Source: a virus. From it: DNA of 25,649 nucleotides. The notes beneath the pieces were generated by a model. It was not told the origin of the DNA, searched no databases, and worked only from the letters and a program-made list of their open reading frames with translations. The position numbers were made by a program, and so were the translations under genes. Below are positions 1 through 17,538 of this stretch, in pieces (the stretch's first letter is position 1; each line of letters opens with the position of its first letter). The stretch lies in IMG/VR virus record IMGVR_UViG_3300021957_000267, positions 1 through 25,649 of that record; one strand, written 5' to 3'.

Positions 1-1763
1 TTCTCTGACCCATACTCACCGGTCTCTTCTTGTTTAGCTTCAACATCATCTTGTGCATCTTGTAAGTTCTGGGCTATGACATTGGCTACAGTTTGTTCAG
101 CTTCTGTGGCTGATGCATCTGTAGAGACTGACACATCTATTTGACTTTGTAAAGTTTGAGTAGTTGTTGTATCAACTGCGACACTCGTTGTCTCAACTGT
201 CTCAGCTTCAACACTTGTAGAGCTTGTAACACTAGCACTCATATCTAACACTTGATTGTTTTGTGCAGTAGAAGATGCAAATTGTTCTGATATACTAGGT
301 GAGTTACTAGTACTTACACCCCCACCAGAATTAGACGATGATACGCTAGAAGCTCCTGTCGTTCCACCTGTAGCGTGTATAGAGTTTCCTGATGTAGTTC
401 CACTAACACTAGACTTAGCTGTGCTTAGAGTAGAGGAGACAACACGTAACGCTGTTTCTTTACTTATTGAACTTTCACTTTCTGAAACTTCAGCAACCAG
501 TTCTTCTTCTATCTCTTCTTCTATAACCTCATCTTCTTCTTCAACCAGCTCCTCAATAAGCTCTTCTTCCGGCTCTTCTGCATACGCAAGTTCTTCTTCC
601 ATTGTTGTCTCTTCCTCAAACCACTCCTCCACTTCTTCAATAAATGTTTCTTGAAATACAAACTCCTCAATCATCAACTCTTCAATCGGTATAAAGGCTT
701 CTTCTTCACGCATAAACGGAAGAGGTTCTACAAATTCTTCAAGTGGTTGTAGCTGTTCAAAGATTATATCTTCTTCAAATACAAACTCAGGCTCTTCAAA
801 GATGTCATACTCAGGTTCAAAGATGTACTCTTCAAAGATTTCTGGCTCTTCAAAAGTGTCATACATGTCATACTCTTCGTAACCATAGTCAAATAGTTCT
901 TCTTCATATCCGTAGTCAAAGTATTCTTCTTCTTGATAGTATCCTATATCTTCTTCTTGTCGATAGCCTTGACAAAATGGTCCATACTGTGGGTCTAGGT
1001 CACATTGAAAATCATCATAGGCTTCCCAGTACCCTGCACAGCTTACATCATTTAAAGGATTACTACAGTCAATGGTCTCGCTTGTACCATACAACGAACC
1101 ACCAGCTTCTAATAAAGTATTTGATGTAGTGCTGTTCCAGTCCTTACTTACACAAGAGCTAGTATTGGTTGTTCCTGTATTACATTCATCGTGAAACAAG
1201 TATTGATAGTAAGTATCTGAATCTTTCTGTTGTCCAATAAGAACATCGTGCTGTATAATATTTAAGTCACCATACCTAAAATCAAAAGTAGAGTTAGTCC
1301 AAAGTATTACTTCAAAACTGTTATCAGTATTACTACGATTATACTCACGCATGTCGTACCAACCAAAGACTGTCTTATCACTAAAGTTCTTGGCTAACAT
1401 TTTAGAGTTGTTATCTCTTATCAAGTCAGTCCAGAACGGAAACAGTGTGTAGTTGTATTGTGGTAGTGGGTCAGGTGTGTAATCACCACAGTAATTATTA
1501 TAGTTTACATTGCCTGTACCTAACCCAAAGTGAAGACAACCATTCGTAGCCATACGAGCAGATGTAAATTGTTTATCGTAAAAAATAAATGTAAAATCTA
1601 AATTAAAAGCAGACGAAAGCTGGTCGTCTCCTGAGTTTAGACTGGTTGTATTTGATTCGTTTGTAAGGTCTACTAAAGACTGATTGCCTTCGTAGATATA
1701 CTGACTAAAGACATTAAGACTTAAGAGACACGCTACTGCGTAGCATAGAATTCTTTTCTGCAT
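1..1763 (-). CDS. Partial exported protein with nidogen-like (NIDO) domain and acidic repeat tract
   Basis: The frame opening with ATG at 1763 stays open for 587 codons and leaves the window, so the C terminus is missing. Residues 1-21 look like a Sec signal peptide (basic MQKR, then a hydrophobic stretch ending VFSQ). Residues about 50-190 resemble the extracellular NIDO domain: a beta-rich segment with 'FTFIFYDKQF', 'RMATNGCLHFG' and 'LFPFWTDL', matching the 'sNG.i.Fg ... PFW.D' pattern of that family. Eight cysteines lie between residues 76 and 264, suggesting disulfides outside the cytoplasm. Residues about 268-425 are extremely Glu-rich with Tyr/Phe repeats (two copies of an 'FDYGYEE' unit, several 'FEEPE' units), then a Ser/Thr-rich tail to the edge. 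The start overlaps the preceding gene by 31 bases, with only a weak ribosome site. The role is unknown; export to the envelope of the infected cell or a virion surface role are inferences. Confidence 0.8.
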   Translation of the reverse strand, partial: MQKRILCYAVACLLSLNVFSQYIYEGNQSLVDLTNESNTTSLNSGDDQLSSAFNLDFTFIFYDKQFTSARMATNGCLHFGLGTGNVNYNNYCGDYTPDPLPQYNYTLFPFWTDLIRDNNSKMLAKNFSDKTVFGWYDMREYNRSNTDNSFEVILWTNSTFDFRYGDLNIIQHDVLIGQQKDSDTYYQYLFHDECNTGTTNTSSCVSKDWNSTTSNTLLEAGGSLYGTSETIDCSNPLNDVSCAGYWEAYDDFQCDLDPQYGPFCQGYRQEEDIGYYQEEEYFDYGYEEELFDYGYEEYDMYDTFEEPEIFEEYIFEPEYDIFEEPEFVFEEDIIFEQLQPLEEFVEPLPFMREEEAFIPIEELMIEEFVFQETFIEEVEEWFEEETTMEEELAYAEEPEEELIEELVEEEDEVIEEEIEEELVAEVSESESSISKETALRVVSSTLSTAKSSVSGTTSGNSIHATGGTTGASSVSSSNSGGGVSTSNSPSISEQFASSTAQNNQVLDMSASVTSSTSVEAETVETTSVAVDTTTTQTLQSQIDVSVSTDASATEAEQTVANVIAQNLQDAQDDVEAKQEETGEYGSE

Positions 1764-2812
1764 TGCCTTTTTGTTTTAGTTTTAGTTGTATAAATAACTT
1801 TGACTGCCCCAACAACATCTTTGTTTATCTTGTCTCTGTTAGGATTTCTGTCGTGTGTGCATTGCTGTATAAAAAGTTTTTCTTGTTCTTTAGCATCAGG
1901 TCTTTTAGATTTGTTTTCTGCCCAAGCTTTAGTTGCTTCTTTACCTATCTGACCTTGATAAGGGCAAGGAGTACCAGCCATTTCCATAGCCTTAAATACT
2001 CTTGGGTCTTGACAAAGTATAGATACTGAAGCCACTTTCATACCGGTATCGTACAGATACTTGGAAAGTTTTAAGCGTTCACAGTTCTCGTCAGTCACAG
2101 TAGCTCCTGTAGAGAACCCAAATACTTGCCCTTGAAAGGCACCAGAACGACCTACAGTACAGAGGTCTTGAGAGTAAGACATAATACTAGGTGCTATAGC
2201 AGAAGCAGGAGGTGCTTTGCTTTTTACGTTCTGATTAATAGTCTGAGTAGAGTTAGACTCGTTAATATTTCTATTAGTATTATCAGACTTTGTATTGTTA
2301 TTATTGGTATTAGTATTGTCAGTAGTAACATTAGAATCTGAAGTCGATGTATTAACGTTAGTATTGTTATTAGTATTTGTATTATTACTAGTAGAATTAC
2401 TGTTGTTATTTACGTTCTGATTGACTGTAGAGTTTACAGTAGAGTTAGATGTAGACGTAGAAGTATTAACGTTGTTGTTATTGTTTGTATTTGTTGAAGT
2501 GTTATTTGATGTCGAGGTATTTACGTTAGTATTATTTGAAGTATTAACATTAGTATTATTATTAGTGTTAGTATTTACATTTGTATTGTTATTAGTATTG
2601 GTGTTTGTATTGGTATTACTATTCGTATTATTGTTGGTGTTGGTATTAGTAGTCACTGTAGTATTAATGGTAGTTAATCCATTGTCTTCACAATACTGTG
2701 TACCCGAAGTACAGTCGCCTGTTTGGTCTGAACTTACAGCAAATGACATTGTTAATAAACCTAATATAAATAATGGTCCAAAAAATCCTCTATTTAAATC
2801 ACCTCTTGACAC
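1733..2812 (-). CDS. Exported Asn/Thr-rich protein with Cys-containing C-terminal domain
   Basis: The 359-residue product begins with a signal-peptide-like segment (charged residues 1-9, hydrophobic 10-26). The start is GTG, chosen because an AGGAG site lies 5 bases upstream and because the next ATG would remove most of the signal peptide. Residues about 47-196 are almost only Asn, Thr, Ser and Val in short repeats, probably a flexible extended spacer. Residues about 197-359 form a conventional domain with 'MSYSQDLCTVG', 'DENCERLKLSKYLYD', 'ILCQDPRVF' and 'AGTPCPYQG', which I remember as a recurrent family of unknown function in uncultured marine phages. Eight cysteines in total fit an exported, disulfide-bonded protein. 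It sits just after two membrane proteins and overlaps the next exported protein gene, so the two may act together at the cell envelope. No enzymatic function is assigned. Confidence 0.8.
   Translation of the reverse strand: MSRGDLNRGFFGPLFILGLLTMSFAVSSDQTGDCTSGTQYCEDNGLTTINTTVTTNTNTNNNTNSNTNTNTNTNNNTNVNTNTNNNTNVNTSNNTNVNTSTSNNTSTNTNNNNNVNTSTSTSNSTVNSTVNQNVNNNSNSTSNNTNTNNNTNVNTSTSDSNVTTDNTNTNNNNTKSDNTNRNINESNSTQTINQNVKSKAPPASAIAPSIMSYSQDLCTVGRSGAFQGQVFGFSTGATVTDENCERLKLSKYLYDTGMKVASVSILCQDPRVFKAMEMAGTPCPYQGQIGKEATKAWAENKSKRPDAKEQEKLFIQQCTHDRNPNRDKINKDVVGAVKVIYTTKTKTKRQCRKEFYATQ
2225..2674 (-). repeat. Asn/Thr codon-repeat tract within the exported protein gene
   Basis: The coding strand here is a degenerate run of AAT/AAC and ACT/ACA/ACC codons with occasional GTT and AGT, encoding residues about 47-196 of the exported protein. 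The repeats are imperfect and the codons vary, so the amino-acid composition seems selected rather than the DNA sequence itself. Confidence 0.75.
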
Positions 2813-3764: not shown

Positions 3765-6700
3765 TTATTCAGGGCTGTTCCAAAGTTTATTAGTTCTATC
3801 AATTGTTGCTTGATTATATTCAGGAACCTTTGAAGCTAATGTATGATGCTGGTATAAGTATACATTCTTACCAGCTTGTTCATCACCTAAAAAGTAAGGA
3901 ATCAAATGTTTGTCACTTCCTTTTTTTTCAAATATATCTCCATAAAATAATAACTGTTGAGCTTCATCATTTAATTTACTTGTATCTTTACTCTCTCGTA
4001 TACCATCAAATATATTTTTATCTTTAGGGTCGAGTCTTCTCAATGTTCTATTAATTGCTGGTTCTACACTATCTCTTAAAAATTGATACTTACCTGTAGC
4101 AGAACTTCCCAATAAATTAGAACCTAAAGGTGCATTTCTATTATTACTTTCAATCTTTCTTACGTTGGCTGCTAATCTTTGTGCAGAGTCTTTAAATTGT
4201 TCAAAAGATACATCTGACATTTCAGGATATTGTGTTTTAAATCTATCATAGTGTTTGGCAAGAAAATTATTTACTCGTTGTGTATCTTCAGGACTAGGTT
4301 CTTGCCTTTCTGTTTTTAATTTATCTACAGTATCGGAAGCAACTCTCGATGCTTTTTCAAGAGTATCTTTTATTGTTCCAAAAATAGTACCTTGGTTTAA
4401 ACCTAACCTATCCATTTGTTCGTCAGATGAAACATTACCACTTCGAGCTTCATCATCTACTTTCTTTAGTAGTGCTGCTGCAGCCGGTATAGCGATACCA
4501 TATTTTTTTGATATCTCAATAATTCGTGCATCAAATATAACATAGTTTTTATTTTTTTTACCTTTTCTTTTTCTAGTAAAACCATCATTATATTTAATTC
4601 CCATAACACCAGATTTTTCTAAAATATCTTCTACATATTTTTTATCTGAAGTATTACCTTTATTTAATAGTTTATTAATACTACTAATAAAATCTTCACC
4701 AGTTAAATCTCCCATTGTTACCCAAGCATCTGACACTAATTGTTCTCTATCTATGTCAATAGAATCTTTAGTCCAGCTAGGGTATCTACTATATAAATCA
4801 ATAAACTCGGTAAGCTGTCTATTATCTAAACGTTCTACCGCAGTTTCAGCAGCACTAATAACTCCTCCTGATTGATTACTCATTTTTGCATCCCAATCTA
4901 ATAGATGTTTGTCTGTTGTTTTTAAATTTACTTTGTAAAGATTTCCAACATTATCTGGCAAAGGTGTAGTTTTAAATGTTTCTAACTCTTTATCTTTGTC
5001 TATAGCTTTTAAAAGGAAGGCTTGTTTTTCTTTATTGTTTCCAGCTTTTTTAGCTTTTTCTGCTTGATCTAATAAGTCTTGGTATTCTTCATTTAATTTT
5101 TTAATACCTTGACTTTTACTAATATTTTTTTTGTATCCTTTTGCAATCTCTTCAGTAGTTGTAAAGTATAGTCCTTTACCAAATGCCATAGCACCTTCAC
5201 CAGACATTAAAAATTCTGTAGAAAACTTATCAAAATCACTAGGTGTTCCGTGCATTGCTTCAATACCTTTAAAGCTTTCATCTTCTAATATTTTTTTCTG
5301 GCTATATGGCAAAGGTAATATGTCAAGTTCTGTCGCTGAATAACGTGGTTTTGGTTTACTAATGTTTTCAACAATCTCTTTACCAACAAGTTTACCTAAT
5401 CCTCCAAATGCAAACTCTTTTCGATACGCTTTATTAAATTTATCTGTTTTCCAACCACCATCAGCATACGCTTCAGCTTCTTCTTTAGTATCAAAAGCTT
5501 TAAAGTTTCCACTCTTCTTCATTAACTTCATTGTTTCTGTATTATTGTCATACTGCACAAGTTTACCATCTTGCTCTATGATAGTAGGGTATGCTATAAA
5601 TTGACCTTCAATATCACCCCAAGCCATTCGATGAGTTTGAGGATTACCAGATTCAGGGTCTCTAATAAACATTTTAGGGTCTGGTCTAGCTATTCGTTTT
5701 TCAAATTTAGGAGGTCCTGATGCTTCACCTCCATTATCAAACCCCAACCTATCCATTTGTTCTTGGTAAGGTTCACCAGTGTATGGATTAATTCTATCTG
5801 CTGGGTTTTCTTTTGTGTAAGGTACTTTGTTTTCTCCTTCAACTATACCACCTGTAACATAATTACTTCTATAAAAGTCAGTATAGTTACGAGTATATTT
5901 TCTATCTTTAGGTCTATCTTTTATACCTAGAGCATAGGCTGCTTCTTTGTCTATTTCTTTTGCAAATATATTTAAATCATCGTAAGGATTAGCACCAATA
6001 TATTTATTCATAAGACCTTTAGTTCCTATGAATGGAGTTTTACCTGCTGCTGTTTCAACCAATCCTTTTCTTCCTAGAAGTAAACCAAGAGTATCAGTTA
6101 CTGTTGGTCCTCCTAAACTTAAGACTGAAACTGCAGGATTTTTTGTATATTGAATAGAGTTTTTAAAACGTAACCCATATTCAAGTGGACCAAACAGTCC
6201 AACCCTTTGAAAAGCTTTTATAAAGTCTTCATCTTCAAAACCTTCTTCTACTATTCGATCTCTGTTATCTTCATTAGACCTCCAGTAGTTTGTTCCTAAT
6301 GCTAAACTTGTAGCCATTAAAGCAAAAGCTCCTAGCTTTGCCCCATTAACGGTAGGATTATTAACTGCTGATCGAATATAATTTTTTAAAACTGTATTAC
6401 TAAACACGGTTGGGTATCTTAAAAACTGTGTTAAAATATCTACTTTTGGATTTGTCATAAAGATAGGTATTCTTGCTCTATCTCTACCTACAGGCATGAT
6501 AACTTCATTTACAAATCTACCTGCTCCTTGAAGAACTGATTTATAAAAATCATCTTCATATTTAAGCTGACCTGTTAAAACACCATCTTTTCTTTCGGCT
6601 CCAAACCCTGTCTTAGCTCCACTATTTAACCATCTAAGTCCATCGTCTATGTCTATTCCTAGATCAAACACTTCACTTTTTAATAGTTGAATATTACGTA

Positions 6701-8936
6701 CTTCTTTTCTACTTAACTCTTTGGTTGCTGTCTCATTAAATATATCAACACCTTCTTTAGAAAGCTTATTTAATTTTTCTAAGTTTTCTTTTATTAAGTT
6801 TTTTGCAATATTAAACGAAGCTAACTGTACAGATTTTGTCCAAGGAGTAAGTAAGTTAAGTCTAAAGAATCCTCGTGCTTGTTTTTTTAACCATTCATTT
6901 TGTAGTCCTTCACCGGTTAAACGATTGGTAGATTCTGCTAACGATTCATCCATTGCCATAAATACTTGATTCATTTCTTTTTGTATTTGTGAATCTGGCA
7001 TGTCATATTTTTTTCTTAACAAAATAGGAATATCTTGTACAAAAATTTTATGTCCTTCTTTTACTCCACTTAGTGCATCTTGAATTGGTTTAGTAACAGA
7101 ACCACTAGTTTTTGTTAGTGGAATCATTGCTTCTGTTAATGATGATACTGTAGCTAACGGTAGATATGCTAATGAGTTAGCAAGTTTCATTGTATCATAT
7201 GCACCTTGTATTCTTTGGCTATCAAAATAATTTACTTGTCCAGTTATAGATTCATATAACTTAGTAATTCTTTTTCTATCTCCTCTAGATAATCCTCTTC
7301 CTCCTCTAGCTTCTCTTAACTCTCTATCCATTGGGTCTAGCCATCTAGCAGCAAATTGATTTGCATTAGATTTTGTGCTAAATCCCGGTAGTAAAAAACT
7401 TTTCTTATGCTGTATAGCATTAGCAGCATTCATGTAGTAAGTTACCACAGTGTTTAAATCATTGGTTAAAAACTTTTCAAAAGCGTTATCGTTTAAATCT
7501 TGAAATGCTCTTGACTGTGTTAATAAAATAGAATGTGAAGAAAACAACTCGTTGTTCTTATTAAGCATATCATTAATAAGATCAGAAGCATCAGCTTTAT
7601 CTTTAACAACGTTTTCACTAATTAATAAATCTGTAAATGTTTCTCTGTTTTCTTCAATTGCTTTTCTGTCCCAGCTTCTTGTAAAATAATTTGGAAGTTT
7701 TCTTTCTTCTTTTATAAGACCTGCTTCAATAGCATCATCAAATATTTTATTAAAAAACCCTCTTAAGTCTTTTGCAACTTGTTGAACATCTTCGCTGTAA
7801 CCTTCAGGTTTATCTCCTCTTAAAATTCTAATAACACCTAATTCGTCTGCTTCTTTAAATGCACCAGCTTTACGTAGTGGGGCAGTAGCTTCATCAAATA
7901 CGCTATGATATTCACCTCTAAGATTTTCTAGTAGTTCACCGTGTCCTAATGCTACACGTTCTCGGGTTAGTCCACCAAAGCCACGACTAAAATCTTCTCG
8001 CATTAAATTACCAAGCTCTCTGGTAATAGGAGAAAATTTTGCTTTTGTATCTAGTATAGACGTAGCCGAACCAATTGTATTTGCTTTTAAAATGTCCCCA
8101 GCTTCTAAAGTTTTTGAAACTTTATCTTGGAAACTTCCCGGCTCAAGTGTTAAATAACCATCTTCTGAATAAAGTCTATTCATTTTACTATAGAAAAGAT
8201 TACCTTTTTGTAAAGCTCCACCAAGTAATCCACCTGTTAAAGTTCCTAACGCAGCAGTTCCTGCTAACTCTGGTGTAGAATATAGTTTTCTTATACCAGT
8301 ATTTAGTTCAGTTGTTTGTCTAAAGTGATTGTCTAGTCCTGTCCATGCTCCTACTTCTGCACCTGTGACTAGAGCTGCTTTCTTAACAGCTTCTTTTCCT
8401 TCTTTTTTAAGTTGACCTGCTATAATACTTTTAGGAATGGTAGGACCTACAAAGTTTTTAGCTACTTGTAACCCTGCTGTTGCAACCCCTTGTCTTGCAG
8501 CTAATGATGCTCCACCTGTTACAGGAGTAAGTAATGCTGCTGTTATAGCAGTGGGGTCAGTGGTAATATCAATAGCTGCATCTTTAACTAACCCAAAGAA
8601 TTGTTTCATGCTTCCTAAATCAGCATTATCAAATTCTTTTCTTAGATAATTATAATCTTGTTTTTGTTGATCGGTAAAGTTAGCACTTTGTGCAGCTCGT
8701 CTCATACCAGAGTATAGATTAAAATCAGAGTCTCTTAGATATTCAAACACATCATCAGAGTTTTCGCCCACAGATTGTAAAAACCTTTCAGAGACTTCTA
8801 AAAACTGTTCATCTTTTTCTAACTCGTCTAAGGTTTTTTTACGACCAGCATAACTTGAACCGATTGTCAAGTTATTTTTAAGAGTGGGAAGACTTCCTTT
8901 AAGAATGCCTACACCTGTTAAAGAAGTTAATGCCAT
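3765..8936 (-). CDS. Giant internal virion protein with ADP-ribosyltransferase-like and transglycosylase domains
   Basis: The 1723-residue product corresponds in position and size class to T7 gp16, the ejected protein that spans the envelope and cuts peptidoglycan. Residues 1-1040 are mostly helical with hydrophobic Gly/Ala stretches (about 125-160 and 220-245). At about 1043-1067 is a 'NPADRINPYTGEPY' / 'EQMDRLGF' linker. Residues 1099-1175 hold a small domain ('YPTIIEQDGKLV' ... 'FDTKEEAEAYADGGW') common in phage polyvalent proteins. Residues about 1220-1480 look like an ADP-ribosyltransferase fold: His-Gly-Thr at 1229-1231, Tyr1257 and Tyr1268 spaced Y-X10-Y, and a terminal strand 'NYVIFDARIIEI' at 1464, where Asn replaces the usual Glu. 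A second 'EQMDRLG' lies at about 1503. Residues 1594-1723 resemble a lysozyme-like transglycosylase, with Glu1596 in 'KIES' and 'GSSATGKYQF' following. Activity of the ADP-ribosyltransferase part is unproven. Confidence 0.85.
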   Translation of the reverse strand: MALTSLTGVGILKGSLPTLKNNLTIGSSYAGRKKTLDELEKDEQFLEVSERFLQSVGENSDDVFEYLRDSDFNLYSGMRRAAQSANFTDQQKQDYNYLRKEFDNADLGSMKQFFGLVKDAAIDITTDPTAITAALLTPVTGGASLAARQGVATAGLQVAKNFVGPTIPKSIIAGQLKKEGKEAVKKAALVTGAEVGAWTGLDNHFRQTTELNTGIRKLYSTPELAGTAALGTLTGGLLGGALQKGNLFYSKMNRLYSEDGYLTLEPGSFQDKVSKTLEAGDILKANTIGSATSILDTKAKFSPITRELGNLMREDFSRGFGGLTRERVALGHGELLENLRGEYHSVFDEATAPLRKAGAFKEADELGVIRILRGDKPEGYSEDVQQVAKDLRGFFNKIFDDAIEAGLIKEERKLPNYFTRSWDRKAIEENRETFTDLLISENVVKDKADASDLINDMLNKNNELFSSHSILLTQSRAFQDLNDNAFEKFLTNDLNTVVTYYMNAANAIQHKKSFLLPGFSTKSNANQFAARWLDPMDRELREARGGRGLSRGDRKRITKLYESITGQVNYFDSQRIQGAYDTMKLANSLAYLPLATVSSLTEAMIPLTKTSGSVTKPIQDALSGVKEGHKIFVQDIPILLRKKYDMPDSQIQKEMNQVFMAMDESLAESTNRLTGEGLQNEWLKKQARGFFRLNLLTPWTKSVQLASFNIAKNLIKENLEKLNKLSKEGVDIFNETATKELSRKEVRNIQLLKSEVFDLGIDIDDGLRWLNSGAKTGFGAERKDGVLTGQLKYEDDFYKSVLQGAGRFVNEVIMPVGRDRARIPIFMTNPKVDILTQFLRYPTVFSNTVLKNYIRSAVNNPTVNGAKLGAFALMATSLALGTNYWRSNEDNRDRIVEEGFEDEDFIKAFQRVGLFGPLEYGLRFKNSIQYTKNPAVSVLSLGGPTVTDTLGLLLGRKGLVETAAGKTPFIGTKGLMNKYIGANPYDDLNIFAKEIDKEAAYALGIKDRPKDRKYTRNYTDFYRSNYVTGGIVEGENKVPYTKENPADRINPYTGEPYQEQMDRLGFDNGGEASGPPKFEKRIARPDPKMFIRDPESGNPQTHRMAWGDIEGQFIAYPTIIEQDGKLVQYDNNTETMKLMKKSGNFKAFDTKEEAEAYADGGWKTDKFNKAYRKEFAFGGLGKLVGKEIVENISKPKPRYSATELDILPLPYSQKKILEDESFKGIEAMHGTPSDFDKFSTEFLMSGEGAMAFGKGLYFTTTEEIAKGYKKNISKSQGIKKLNEEYQDLLDQAEKAKKAGNNKEKQAFLLKAIDKDKELETFKTTPLPDNVGNLYKVNLKTTDKHLLDWDAKMSNQSGGVISAAETAVERLDNRQLTEFIDLYSRYPSWTKDSIDIDREQLVSDAWVTMGDLTGEDFISSINKLLNKGNTSDKKYVEDILEKSGVMGIKYNDGFTRKRKGKKNKNYVIFDARIIEISKKYGIAIPAAAALLKKVDDEARSGNVSSDEQMDRLGLNQGTIFGTIKDTLEKASRVASDTVDKLKTERQEPSPEDTQRVNNFLAKHYDRFKTQYPEMSDVSFEQFKDSAQRLAANVRKIESNNRNAPLGSNLLGSSATGKYQFLRDSVEPAINRTLRRLDPKDKNIFDGIRESKDTSKLNDEAQQLLFYGDIFEKKGSDKHLIPYFLGDEQAGKNVYLYQHHTLASKVPEYNQATIDRTNKLWNSPE

Positions 8937-15783: not shown

Positions 15784-16350
15784 CTATTCACTCCATGCTT
15801 GAGTTAAATCATAATTATAAGTTGGGTGGTCTGCACCTACTCCTATCATTGGTGTTTCTGCAGAACCTCCTAAGTAATACATTTCTAGATTGTTACTATT
15901 CCAATAGTCTCCACCAATTCTACATCTAATTTGTAAAGTATCTGCATCTTGAACAGTCAGTGTAGGGTAAGTTCCATCTCCTGAACCACCACCATTAAAA
16001 CTTGGGTGTCCTCTGTGAATGACTTCTCGTATTTTTGTAGCAGTTGCATGTATCCCACTACTAGCATTATCGTATCTTCTTTGGATAACCCACTCTTTCC
16101 AGTTATTACCCCAATAGTAAGTGCCCCAATTATGAGTAGCTATATAGTGAGTTGTAAATCTAGTATCAAAATTGCTTCTTACATCTGCTGTGCTACTAGG
16201 TACAGTTACCGTATCTTGAACATCTACAGGTAGATAAAAATCAAACTGCATAGCTCCACCATTAGAACCATCATGTCCACCATTACTAGCATATGTGTTT
16301 GTTTGAGCACATGCTATCATTATCCCACCATTTCCACCTATTAAAGCCAT
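15784..16350 (-). CDS. Tail adhesin-like paralogue 3
   Basis: The 188-residue product is the third of three related proteins encoded one after another downstream of the tail fibre. Shared traits are an N terminus 'MALIGGNGG', a central 'GTYYWG' motif (paralogues have GSYYYG and GTYYEG), a 'YPTLTVQDA' stretch, then 'YWNSNNLEMYYLGG' and a Gly-rich end containing 'MIGVG'. The proteins are beta-rich, Asn/Gly/Tyr-rich and lack signal peptides, as expected for virion surface proteins. Aromatic and Gly-rich loops suggest receptor or glycan binding, by analogy with small adhesins placed after long fibres. No clear ribosome site precedes this ATG, so it may be translated by coupling to the gene before it. 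Function is inferred from context. Confidence 0.75.
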   Translation of the reverse strand: MALIGGNGGIMIACAQTNTYASNGGHDGSNGGAMQFDFYLPVDVQDTVTVPSSTADVRSNFDTRFTTHYIATHNWGTYYWGNNWKEWVIQRRYDNASSGIHATATKIREVIHRGHPSFNGGGSGDGTYPTLTVQDADTLQIRCRIGGDYWNSNNLEMYYLGGSAETPMIGVGADHPTYNYDLTQAWSE

Positions 16351-16356
16351 ATTAAT

Positions 16357-16938
16357 TTACACCCAAAAAGTTTGATAATATCTATCGTCATAATCTGCAC
16401 CTCTACTACCAAGTCCTGAAGGTGCTCCTGAATTTCTACCAACAAAAGTAACATCAGTACCACCACCTAAATAATATACTTTAACTTCGTTTGCTGTAAA
16501 ATAATCTTTGTCTTGTCTGACTCTTAATTTACCTGTTGCATTATCTTGAACTGTTAAAGTAAAATCATTTGATGAATCAAAACTACTATAGTTATCTCCA
16601 ACTTGCTCACTTAACTGCATAATATATCCACTTGAACTAGCATTTGGATTTCTAAAATAAATATACTCTCTATATACTTGTCCGTAATAATAAGAACCTA
16701 CAGCATGTATTCCTAGTTTTATAGCACACCCAGAAGTTGAATTTGGGTGTGTGGCTGCATGTAAATACACAGGGTCTTGAGTGTAGTTAGTTCCACTTGT
16801 AGGTTTGGATGTTTGTAATGAATCAATATTAGTTATTATAGGAACTACAAAGTCCATTTGTTTTGCAACGTTATCAGTATTTTCTGCTGAACTAAAAGCT
16901 GCTATAATTGGTCCTTTAAATCCACCTATTAATGCCAT
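16357..16938 (-). CDS. Tail adhesin-like paralogue 2
   Basis: The 193-residue middle member of the trio starts 'MALIGGFKGPIIAAF' and contains 'GSYYYGQVYREY', 'FTLTVQDNATGKLRVR', 'YFTANEVKVYYLGG' and 'TFVGRNSG', each aligning with equivalents in its two neighbours while the sequence in between differs strongly. The 'TLTVQD' segment is shared with paralogue 3, and 'ATG' plus 'R' positions in the following strand with paralogue 1. A clear AGGAG ribosome site precedes the start. The pattern of conserved framework and divergent loops suggests duplication followed by diversification of a binding surface. Confidence 0.75.
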   Translation of the reverse strand: MALIGGFKGPIIAAFSSAENTDNVAKQMDFVVPIITNIDSLQTSKPTSGTNYTQDPVYLHAATHPNSTSGCAIKLGIHAVGSYYYGQVYREYIYFRNPNASSSGYIMQLSEQVGDNYSSFDSSNDFTLTVQDNATGKLRVRQDKDYFTANEVKVYYLGGGTDVTFVGRNSGAPSGLGSRGADYDDRYYQTFWV

Positions 16939-16947
16939 GCTATACTC

Positions 16948-17538
16948 CTATTTCCAATCATCGTCTTGTCCATATCTAGAATCATAAGTTAAGTTTCCAA
17001 TGTATGGAACTCCACCACCACCATTAATAATATGCATTTCAAAGTGGTTACTGTTCCAATAATCAGGTTCTCCACCACCACCAACATTTAATCTAAATTC
17101 TCCTGTTGCAGTATCGGAAGAAGTAATTGCAGGATATGTATCTCCTGTGTTCCAGCCCGAATGTACTCTTGTATGTACAGACCAGACTGTTGTAATTTTT
17201 ACTCTATTGGCTGGACTTGCTTCTCCGGTGTAATGACTTTGAATATTAAACAGTCTAGCAGTTTTACCTTCGTAGTAAGTACCGTACTCAGCAACTAAAA
17301 TTTGACATGCATTGGCTAAGTTACTTGAATTATAAATAGTATCATCAGCATCTTTACCTGATTGAGCTGCTGTTAGTGTAGCATTAGGCATTACTGAACT
17401 TGCATTAGAAAAACAAGGTATTTTAAAATTTACATAAATTTCTCCAGCACTATTTATAACAGTAACCTCACTTGCAGTCTGATTGGTTTGACCATAGCCT
17501 ACCATTTGCCCATTATTACCACCACCGTAAAGCGACAT
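16948..17538 (-). CDS. Tail adhesin-like paralogue 1
   Basis: The 196-residue first member of the trio begins one base after the tail fibre stop. Its ribosome site (AGAGGAAG) lies inside the fibre's last codons, so the two are translationally linked. It starts 'MSLYGGGNNGQMVGYGQTNQ' and shares 'GTYYEGK', 'TYPAITSSDTATGEFRL', 'YWNSNHFEMHIINGGGG' and 'YIGNLTYDSRYG' with the two genes that follow. The acidic, Asp/Tyr-rich C terminus resembles that of paralogue 2 ('DYDDRYYQ'). Position suggests a fibre-tip or fibre-associated receptor-binding protein. Confidence 0.75.
   Translation of the reverse strand: MSLYGGGNNGQMVGYGQTNQTASEVTVINSAGEIYVNFKIPCFSNASSVMPNATLTAAQSGKDADDTIYNSSNLANACQILVAEYGTYYEGKTARLFNIQSHYTGEASPANRVKITTVWSVHTRVHSGWNTGDTYPAITSSDTATGEFRLNVGGGGEPDYWNSNHFEMHIINGGGGVPYIGNLTYDSRYGQDDDWK

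What the first reader, a model, noticed from the sequence alone, without database searches (positions are those of the whole stretch)
4500..5290. ADP-ribosyltransferase-like module with Y-X10-Y signature inside an ejected virion protein
Residues about 1220-1480 of the 1723-residue protein show His-Gly-Thr (H1229), 'GKGLYF' with Tyr1257, Tyr1268 exactly 11 positions later, and a closing strand 'NYVIFDARIIEI'. In the diphtheria-toxin/PARP class the catalytic set is His, Y-X10-Y and Glu, and in PARP1 the Glu stands just before the Tyr of the matching 'EYIVYD' strand. Here that place is Asn1464. Since the neighbouring transglycosylase domain marks the protein as ejected into the host, the module could act on a host target immediately at infection, or be a degenerate binding domain.
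Basis: partly seen in the sequence, partly recalled or inferred. Interest (0 to 1): 0.75.

Follow-up and report, generated by a model that had tools for sequence, protein, structure and literature searches.

The report
Phage-injected ADP-ribosyltransferase-like cassette

Summary
In detail: H1229, GKGLYF with Y1257, Y1268 and NYVIFD with N1464 lie at the stated places. The module belongs with the phage 'ART in polyvalent proteins' family (Pfam ART-PolyVal, PF18760; sub-threshold for this protein alone, matched at E<=0.01 by 68 of 71 relatives). A structure model of this module matches viral ART-PolyVal models. A model of a compact relative matches PARPs, diphtheria toxin and ParT weakly and, best of all, the cryo-EM chain of a cyanophage ejection protein (PDB 9k3a). 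Across about 90 diverse homologues H, Y and Y are invariant and N1464 is Asn in 84 of 85. The Asn is therefore a conserved feature of a long-insert H-Y-Y-N subfamily, not decay in this protein. The domain is under purifying selection (dN/dS 0.13-0.48). It is also an exchangeable cassette: 12 of 21 relatives with the same backbone carry it, and one contig (L098) lacks it, joined inside a linker repeat that flanks it here. Most likely it is an active mono-ADP-ribosyltransferase (or NADase) delivered at infection, like T4 Alt in logic but not in family. Activity, target and ejection are inferred. New member of a known kind.

The parts
3765..8936 (-). 1723-aa large internal virion / polyvalent protein that carries the module
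   Evidence: Single ORF; residues 390-975 match phrog_7348 (3.5e-58), and parts match virion structural families phrog_6958 and phrog_684.
6012..7769 (-). Conserved backbone region (residues 390-975), shared by relatives with and without the ART
   Evidence: PHROG matches; 23 related loci; dN/dS about 0.04-0.18.
5412..5738 (-). About 109-aa exchangeable module (residues about 1067-1175), function unknown
   Evidence: Present or absent as a clean indel among relatives; 37-47% identical stretch in 73-75 kb phages of Pseudomonas and Erwinia.
4491..5267 (-). ADP-ribosyltransferase-like domain (residues about 1224-1482): H1229 (5250-5252), Y1257 (5166-5168), Y1268 (5133-5135), N1464 (4545-4547); subfamily-specific E1247 (5196-5198), D1451 (4584-4586), R1455 (4572-4574)
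   Evidence: Pfam PF18760; conservation over 90 homologues; model with mean pLDDT 84.9, pTM 0.79; matches to viral ART-PolyVal models.
4452..4508 (-). Conserved KYGIA-plus-hydrophobic segment right after the ART (residues about 1477-1495)
   Evidence: Recurs after the ART in most phage-borne homologues examined; 40 of 61 exceed a hydropathy cut-off of 1.2.
3768..4397 (-). C-terminal domain (residues about 1514-1723), transglycosylase-like by motif only, present or absent among relatives
   Evidence: Indel among relatives; no Pfam, PHROG or PDB sequence match.
5740..5762 (-). Linker repeat copy 1 (codes EQMDRLGF, residues 1059-1066), upstream edge of the cassettes
   Evidence: 23-nt direct repeat, 91% identical to copy 2; occurs at the same site in relatives.
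4399..4421 (-). Linker repeat copy 2 (codes EQMDRLGL, residues 1506-1513), downstream edge of the ART cassette
   Evidence: in L098 the upstream and downstream sequences join within this repeat, without the ART.

Best explanation
Residues about 1224-1482 form an ADP-ribosyltransferase-fold domain of the phage polyvalent-protein ART family (ART-PolyVal), in a long-insert subfamily whose conserved set is His-Tyr-Tyr-Asn. It is one exchangeable cargo cassette on the C-terminal part of a large internal virion protein. Most likely the protein is packed in the head and ejected into the host with the DNA. There the domain binds NAD+ (His and the two Tyr, as in PARPs) and transfers a single ADP-ribose to a host molecule, or hydrolyses NAD+, without the usual catalytic Glu at the end strand, much as the Glu-less human mono-ARTs work by substrate-assisted catalysis. 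Shown here: sequence family, fold, conservation, purifying selection, cassette behaviour. Inferred: ejection, catalysis, target.
For: Family: Pfam ART-PolyVal matches this protein and 68 of 71 homologues. Fold: the model of this very module matches 25 viral models at E<=1e-3, the best at 4e-14, several named ART-PolyVal. A compact subfamily member (L147, model pLDDT 86.7) matches PDB 9k3a_B (E=2.4e-7, probability 1.00), then tankyrase-2, PARP15, diphtheria toxin, ParT and PARP14 at E 0.05-0.3, almost all ARTs among the first 35 ranks. Chain 9k3a_B is gp27 of Anabaena phage A-4L, 1717 aa, in a pre-ejectosome structure, with HGT...GSGTYF at about residue 1427. Conservation: H1229, Y1257 and Y1268 89/89, N1464 84/85, D1451 82/83, R1455 85/87; viral plus cellular unique sequences N 86, C 8, G 1. 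Selection: dN/dS 0.13-0.48. Delivery: virion-protein PHROGs; ARTs are described as the most common protein-modifying domains of virion-embedded polyvalent proteins (PMC5512222, PMC9503650). Glu-less activity precedent: the H-Y-I/L/Y mono-ART PARPs (PMC9189837).
Against: No Glu, Asp or Gln at the usual strand position, whereas the published clade signature is H-Y-[EDQ], with D in strand 5 for polyvalent ARTs. The Pfam hit of this protein is below the gathering score and covers only the first half of the domain. The PDB search with the model of this exact domain found no ART, so the solved-structure link runs through a relative. No coordinates were available to show that the residues share a pocket. 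No virion proteomics, no activity data, and host unknown.
Confidence: 0.6

Rival explanations
1. Catalytically dead ART-fold domain: it binds NAD+, ADP-ribose or a host protein but transfers nothing, for example as a decoy or sensor against host NAD-dependent defences.
For: No acidic or Gln residue at the end strand; some ART-fold families are pseudoenzymes (PMC7955679).
Against: The NAD-binding residues H, Y, Y are invariant. Inactive human PARP9 and PARP13 lack the His (Q-Y-T and Y-Y-V), whereas Glu-less PARPs with intact H-Y are listed as active mono-ARTs (PMC9189837). A uniform Asn is not the pattern of relaxed constraint.
Confidence: 0.2
2. Structural or assembly domain: the ART fold now serves packing in the head core or ejectosome, as one of several interchangeable appendages.
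For: The ART-like fold is seen inside a cyanophage pre-ejectosome structure; a conserved hydrophobic segment follows the domain.
Against: The cassette is dispensable: 9 of 21 relatives with complete tails lack it, including L098 at about 94-96% identity. The same domain occurs in proteins of very different size and context, 300-3700 aa. Conservation is highest at the active-site positions.
Confidence: 0.1
3. NADase rather than transferase: it depletes NAD+ or makes ADP-ribose, acting as an injected metabolic poison or as interference with NAD-based defence.
For: ART-fold RES/ParT-type toxins are among the PDB matches and RES matches one homologue.
Against: A lytic phage gains little from early NAD+ loss (inference); nothing in the sequence distinguishes the two activities.
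Confidence: 0.1

Closest known systems
ART-PolyVal (Pfam PF18760; Tox-ART-HYD2-related ARTs of phage polyvalent proteins, Iyer et al. 2017, PMC5512222)
   Same: HGT/S...G.GLYF...Y motifs, location in very large multidomain phage proteins, several named ART-PolyVal models among the structural matches.
   Different: About 250 aa instead of the 140-position Pfam core, with two helical inserts. It has GEGA, YLDxxSR and NYVVF motifs. The compact Pfam-type domains found beside it in the same giant proteins show GyDGv and xYVAFxPTQIKSA instead.
gp27 of Anabaena phage A-4L (PDB 9k3a chain B, pre-ejectosome)
   Same: Best solved-structure match of the subfamily model; a 1717-aa ejection-apparatus protein with an HGT...GSGTYF motif in its C-terminal part.
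   Different: No sequence similarity detectable by profile; Thr-rich end strand instead of Asn (by eye); the rest of the protein is different.
phage T4 Alt
   Same: Head-packaged ADP-ribosyltransferase injected with the DNA (as described in PMC5512222): the same proposed logic.
   Different: Alt is of the R-S-E clade, not H-Y; it is a separate injected protein, not a cassette on a large internal virion protein.
PARP / ARTD family, especially Glu-less mono-ARTs (PARP10, 14, 15)
   Same: HG[ST], GKG[IL]YF and the second Tyr in register; fold matches; no Glu at the end strand.
   Different: Profile similarity is weak and limited to the first half; Asn instead of Ile/Leu/Tyr at the Glu position.
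Sulfitobacter phage phiGT1 gp5 and relatives
   Same: Same subfamily (28-32% identity to this module), encoded among head genes beside the portal and scaffold genes.
   Different: A 387-aa near-standalone protein rather than a cassette on a 1.7-kaa protein.

Membership tests
ADP-ribosyltransferase fold superfamily | ART fold (split beta-sheet) by structure comparison | tested here: met
   The model of a compact subfamily member matches PARPs, diphtheria toxin, ParT and RES, mostly at E 0.05-1, and 9k3a_B at 2.4e-7. The direct model of this domain matches viral ART-PolyVal models but no PDB ART.
ART-PolyVal (PF18760) | Pfam profile match | tested here: inconclusive
   E=2.2e-4 (whole protein) and 8.9e-5 (module), 22.5-23.7 bits against a gathering score of 31.2. 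Most homologues match the family at E<=0.01; of five family-member phage records searched, 2 exceed the gathering score.
ART-PolyVal (PF18760) | Embedded in a large multidomain (polyvalent) phage protein | tested here: met
   1723-aa protein with at least three exchangeable C-terminal modules.
H-Y-[EDQ] ART clade | His in strand 1 (HG[ST]) | tested here: met
   H1229, 89/89 homologues, in register with PARP1 H862.
H-Y-[EDQ] ART clade | Tyr in strand 2 and second Tyr 11 residues on | tested here: met
   Y1257 and Y1268, 89/89 each.
H-Y-[EDQ] ART clade | Glu, Asp or Gln in strand 5 | tested here: not met
   The residue before the closing YVVF strand is Asn in 84/85 viral members (one Gln); N 86, C 8, G 1 in the wider set. 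Placement against PARP1 E988 is by motif and strand order, not by automatic alignment. D1469, five residues on, is Asp in 74/86.
Head-packaged, injected phage ARTs (T4 Alt logic) | Present in the virion and delivered to the host | not testable with these tools
   Only indirect: virion-protein PHROGs, published predictions, cyanophage pre-ejectosome structure.
ADP-ribosyltransferase enzyme | NAD+-dependent ADP-ribosyl transfer | not testable with these tools
   Needs a biochemical assay.

The most novel reading that the evidence does not exclude
The conserved H-Y-Y-N set (with subfamily-specific E1247, D1451 and R1455) is a working ART active site different from the published H-Y-[EDQ] scheme, in a very common class of phage-delivered enzymes. 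Marine podoviruses swap such enzymes on and off a conserved ejection-type protein by recombination at a repeated linker, giving natural near-isogenic phages with and without the injected enzyme.
Probability: 0.3. Interest if true: 0.65.

Novelty: new member of a known kind. Interest (0 to 1): 0.45.

Why it matters
ARTs are described as the commonest protein-modifying domain in phage polyvalent proteins, yet in the papers read here they are discussed as predictions. This subfamily is abundant (574 confirmed candidates in one capped scan) and has a uniform Asn where the described ARTs carry Glu, Asp or Gln, so one biochemical test would inform a large class. The on/off cassette pattern on a nearly identical backbone offers a clean comparison for asking what an injected ART does at the start of infection.

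Tried and rejected
Direct Foldseek search of the window domain's own model against the PDB gave only helical-bundle noise, because two long helical inserts dominate. It was replaced by a compact subfamily member. Sequence searches of the PDB with the single domain and with two family profiles gave nothing relevant. The idea that N1464 is a loss specific to this protein was rejected by the family-wide count. The idea that D1469 is the replacement acid is disfavoured, as it is less conserved than N1464. The transglycosylase claim found no profile support. The 109-aa module matched no named family above cut-off. An automatic alignment of the end strand with PARP1 E988 failed, so that equivalence is by motif only. 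No paper on the cyanophage A-4L ejectosome was found in the held library. Pelagiphage HTVC115P, nearest by capsid protein (60%), has no comparable long protein in the stretch shown and no ART-PolyVal match in its genome.

Full report
1. Observation. The window is a 25,649-base virus record with phage morphogenesis genes on the minus strand. Its major capsid protein is 60% identical to that of Pelagibacter phage HTVC115P, and Puniceispirillum phage HMO-2011 is further off, so a marine alphaproteobacterial host is plausible but unproven. ORF 8936-3765 encodes 1723 aa. The resemblance is more than chance: Pfam ART-PolyVal matches residues 1229-1288 at E=2.2e-4 (below that family's gathering score), and 68 of 71 homologues match the same family.

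2. Family and conservation. A viral scan found close relatives (81-100% identity). Over 90 aligned members, H1229, Y1257 and Y1268 are 89/89; E1247 of GEGA is also 89/89, although that motif was one of the two search patterns and so is biased, as is H1229. N1464 is 84/85 (one Gln), D1451 82/83, R1455 85/87 and D1469 74/86; these, and both Tyr, were not part of the search patterns. A further scan of cellular genomes gave 87 candidates in many phyla; among 95 unique end strands the residue is Asn in 86, Cys in 8 and Gly in 1. The Asn is therefore a hallmark of this subfamily. Compact, full-length Pfam-type domains occur in the same giant proteins. They have a GyDGv motif and an xYVAFxPTQIKSA strand, and lack GEGA and YLDxxSR, so the present subfamily is a sister form rather than the Pfam core. 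The literature assigns polyvalent ARTs an H-Y-D active site with D in strand 5 (PMC5512222); I did not find an Asp as conserved as the Asn on the closing strand here.

3. Fold. AlphaFold2 with 71 homologues gives mean pLDDT 84.9 and pTM 0.79, with strands around H1229, Y1257, YKVNL, GIKYN, NYVIF and IIEIS and long helical inserts. Against viral models the best match is 4e-14, and several hits are named ART-PolyVal or polyvalent-protein associated. Against the PDB this model finds nothing useful. A compact member (L147; model pLDDT 86.7) finds 9k3a_B at E=2.4e-7, then tankyrase-2, PARP15, diphtheria toxin, ParT, PARP14, PARP1 and RES toxins at weaker E-values. That such a list is almost purely ARTs is itself informative. 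Chain 9k3a_B matches A-4L gp27 over its whole 1717 aa and comes from a pre-ejectosome structure; gp27 has HGTRVKG...GSGTYFS at about residue 1427. I could not see which residues of the chain were matched; that this C-terminal stretch is the matched one is inference. Profile comparison with PARP1 and tankyrase-2 puts His, Tyr and Tyr in register. The end strand was not aligned automatically, so N1464 = PARP1 E988 rests on the motif NYVIFD / EYIVYD and strand order.

4. Cassette behaviour. Relatives share a backbone (residues about 560-975; 23 loci). Of 21 with complete C-termini, 12 carry the ART and 9 do not, by reading the tails (the script's ART flag missed divergent HGTA versions in L097, L107, L111 and L112); some of the 21 are near-duplicates. 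Tails combine a 109-aa module, the ART, a C-terminal domain and other modules in different sets. In the window a 23-nt direct repeat coding EQMDRLG lies at 5740-5762 and 4399-4421, and the motif recurs at module edges in relatives. L098 is 95.7% identical to L095 over 7.5 kb (93.8% to the window over 6.4 kb) and then continues directly with the C-terminal domain; the join lies inside the repeat and the ART is missing. L097 has a backbone dS of 0.12 from the window but an ART dS of 0.79, which points to allele replacement. A single contig supports the L098 join, so assembly collapse is not excluded. dN/dS is 0.13-0.48 for the ART and 0.04-0.18 for the backbone: constrained, but evolving faster.

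5. Mechanism. The most likely account is delivery with the ejection proteins, NAD+ binding by His and the two Tyr, and mono-ADP-ribosylation of a host molecule without a strand-5 Glu. Precedent: Glu-less H-Y-I/L/Y human PARPs are listed as mono-ARTs, with substrate-assisted catalysis described for PARP10, whereas inactive PARP9 and PARP13 lack the His (PMC9189837). E1247 in the donor-loop-like GEGA segment and D1451 are candidate acids that might serve instead; this is untested inference. Virion location is supported by PHROG families, by published predictions for polyvalent proteins (PMC5512222, PMC9503650) and by the cyanophage structure, not by direct data for this phage.

6. Novelty. ARTs in virion-embedded polyvalent proteins are known as predictions, and phiGT1 gp5, a member of this subfamily, is annotated as closest to BAR32501, a protein that Iyer et al. 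already discuss in connection with ART neighbours. So this is a new member of a known kind. What I did not find described in the papers read is the uniform Asn subfamily signature and the repeat-edged on/off cassette pattern on a podovirus ejection-type protein; absence from these few papers is not proof of novelty.

Noticed in passing
window 5740-5762 and 4399-4421; L098 around 7496-7521: A short linker repeat (EQMDRLG) brackets C-terminal modules of the 1723-aa protein, and one relative is joined across it without the ART: possible recombination-driven exchange of ejected cargo.
   Followed up: partly
window 4399-5762 and L097, L107: ART alleles are far more diverged than the backbone around them (L097: ART dS 0.79, backbone dS 0.12), suggesting allele replacement.
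   Followed up: partly
window 5412-5738 (residues about 1067-1175): 109-aa module shared (37-47% identity) with proteins of 73-75 kb Pseudomonas and Erwinia phages; function unknown.
   Followed up: partly
L099/L100 and L101/L102 tails; L107 first module: Other short modules occupy the ART site in relatives; they match no Pfam family and at best very weak PHROG hits (E 0.06-0.2).
   Followed up: partly
window 4452-4508 and homologues: A conserved KYG(I/V)A plus Ala/Gly-rich hydrophobic segment follows the ART in most phage-borne members, possibly a membrane or packing element.
   Followed up: partly
L188 / L195, L165 / L196 and similar giant proteins: Giant cellular or prophage proteins (2-3.5 kaa) carry both the compact Pfam-type ART and the long Asn- or Cys-type ART in one polypeptide.
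   Followed up: partly
L162, L167, L172, L174, L175, L178, L181, L188, L192: A subclass has Cys (or Gly in L172) instead of Asn before the closing strand (DGRCYVVFD), mostly in gut-type bacteria.
   Followed up: no
window 15784-17538: Three tandem ORFs of 188, 193 and 196 aa with similar starts (MALIGG/MSLYGG) and similar endings look like paralogues, perhaps fibre-tip proteins.
   Followed up: no
window 1733-2812: 359-aa ORF with a long Asn/Thr-repeat stretch (NTNTNNNTN...), and next to it (3-1763) a very Glu-rich ORF.
   Followed up: no
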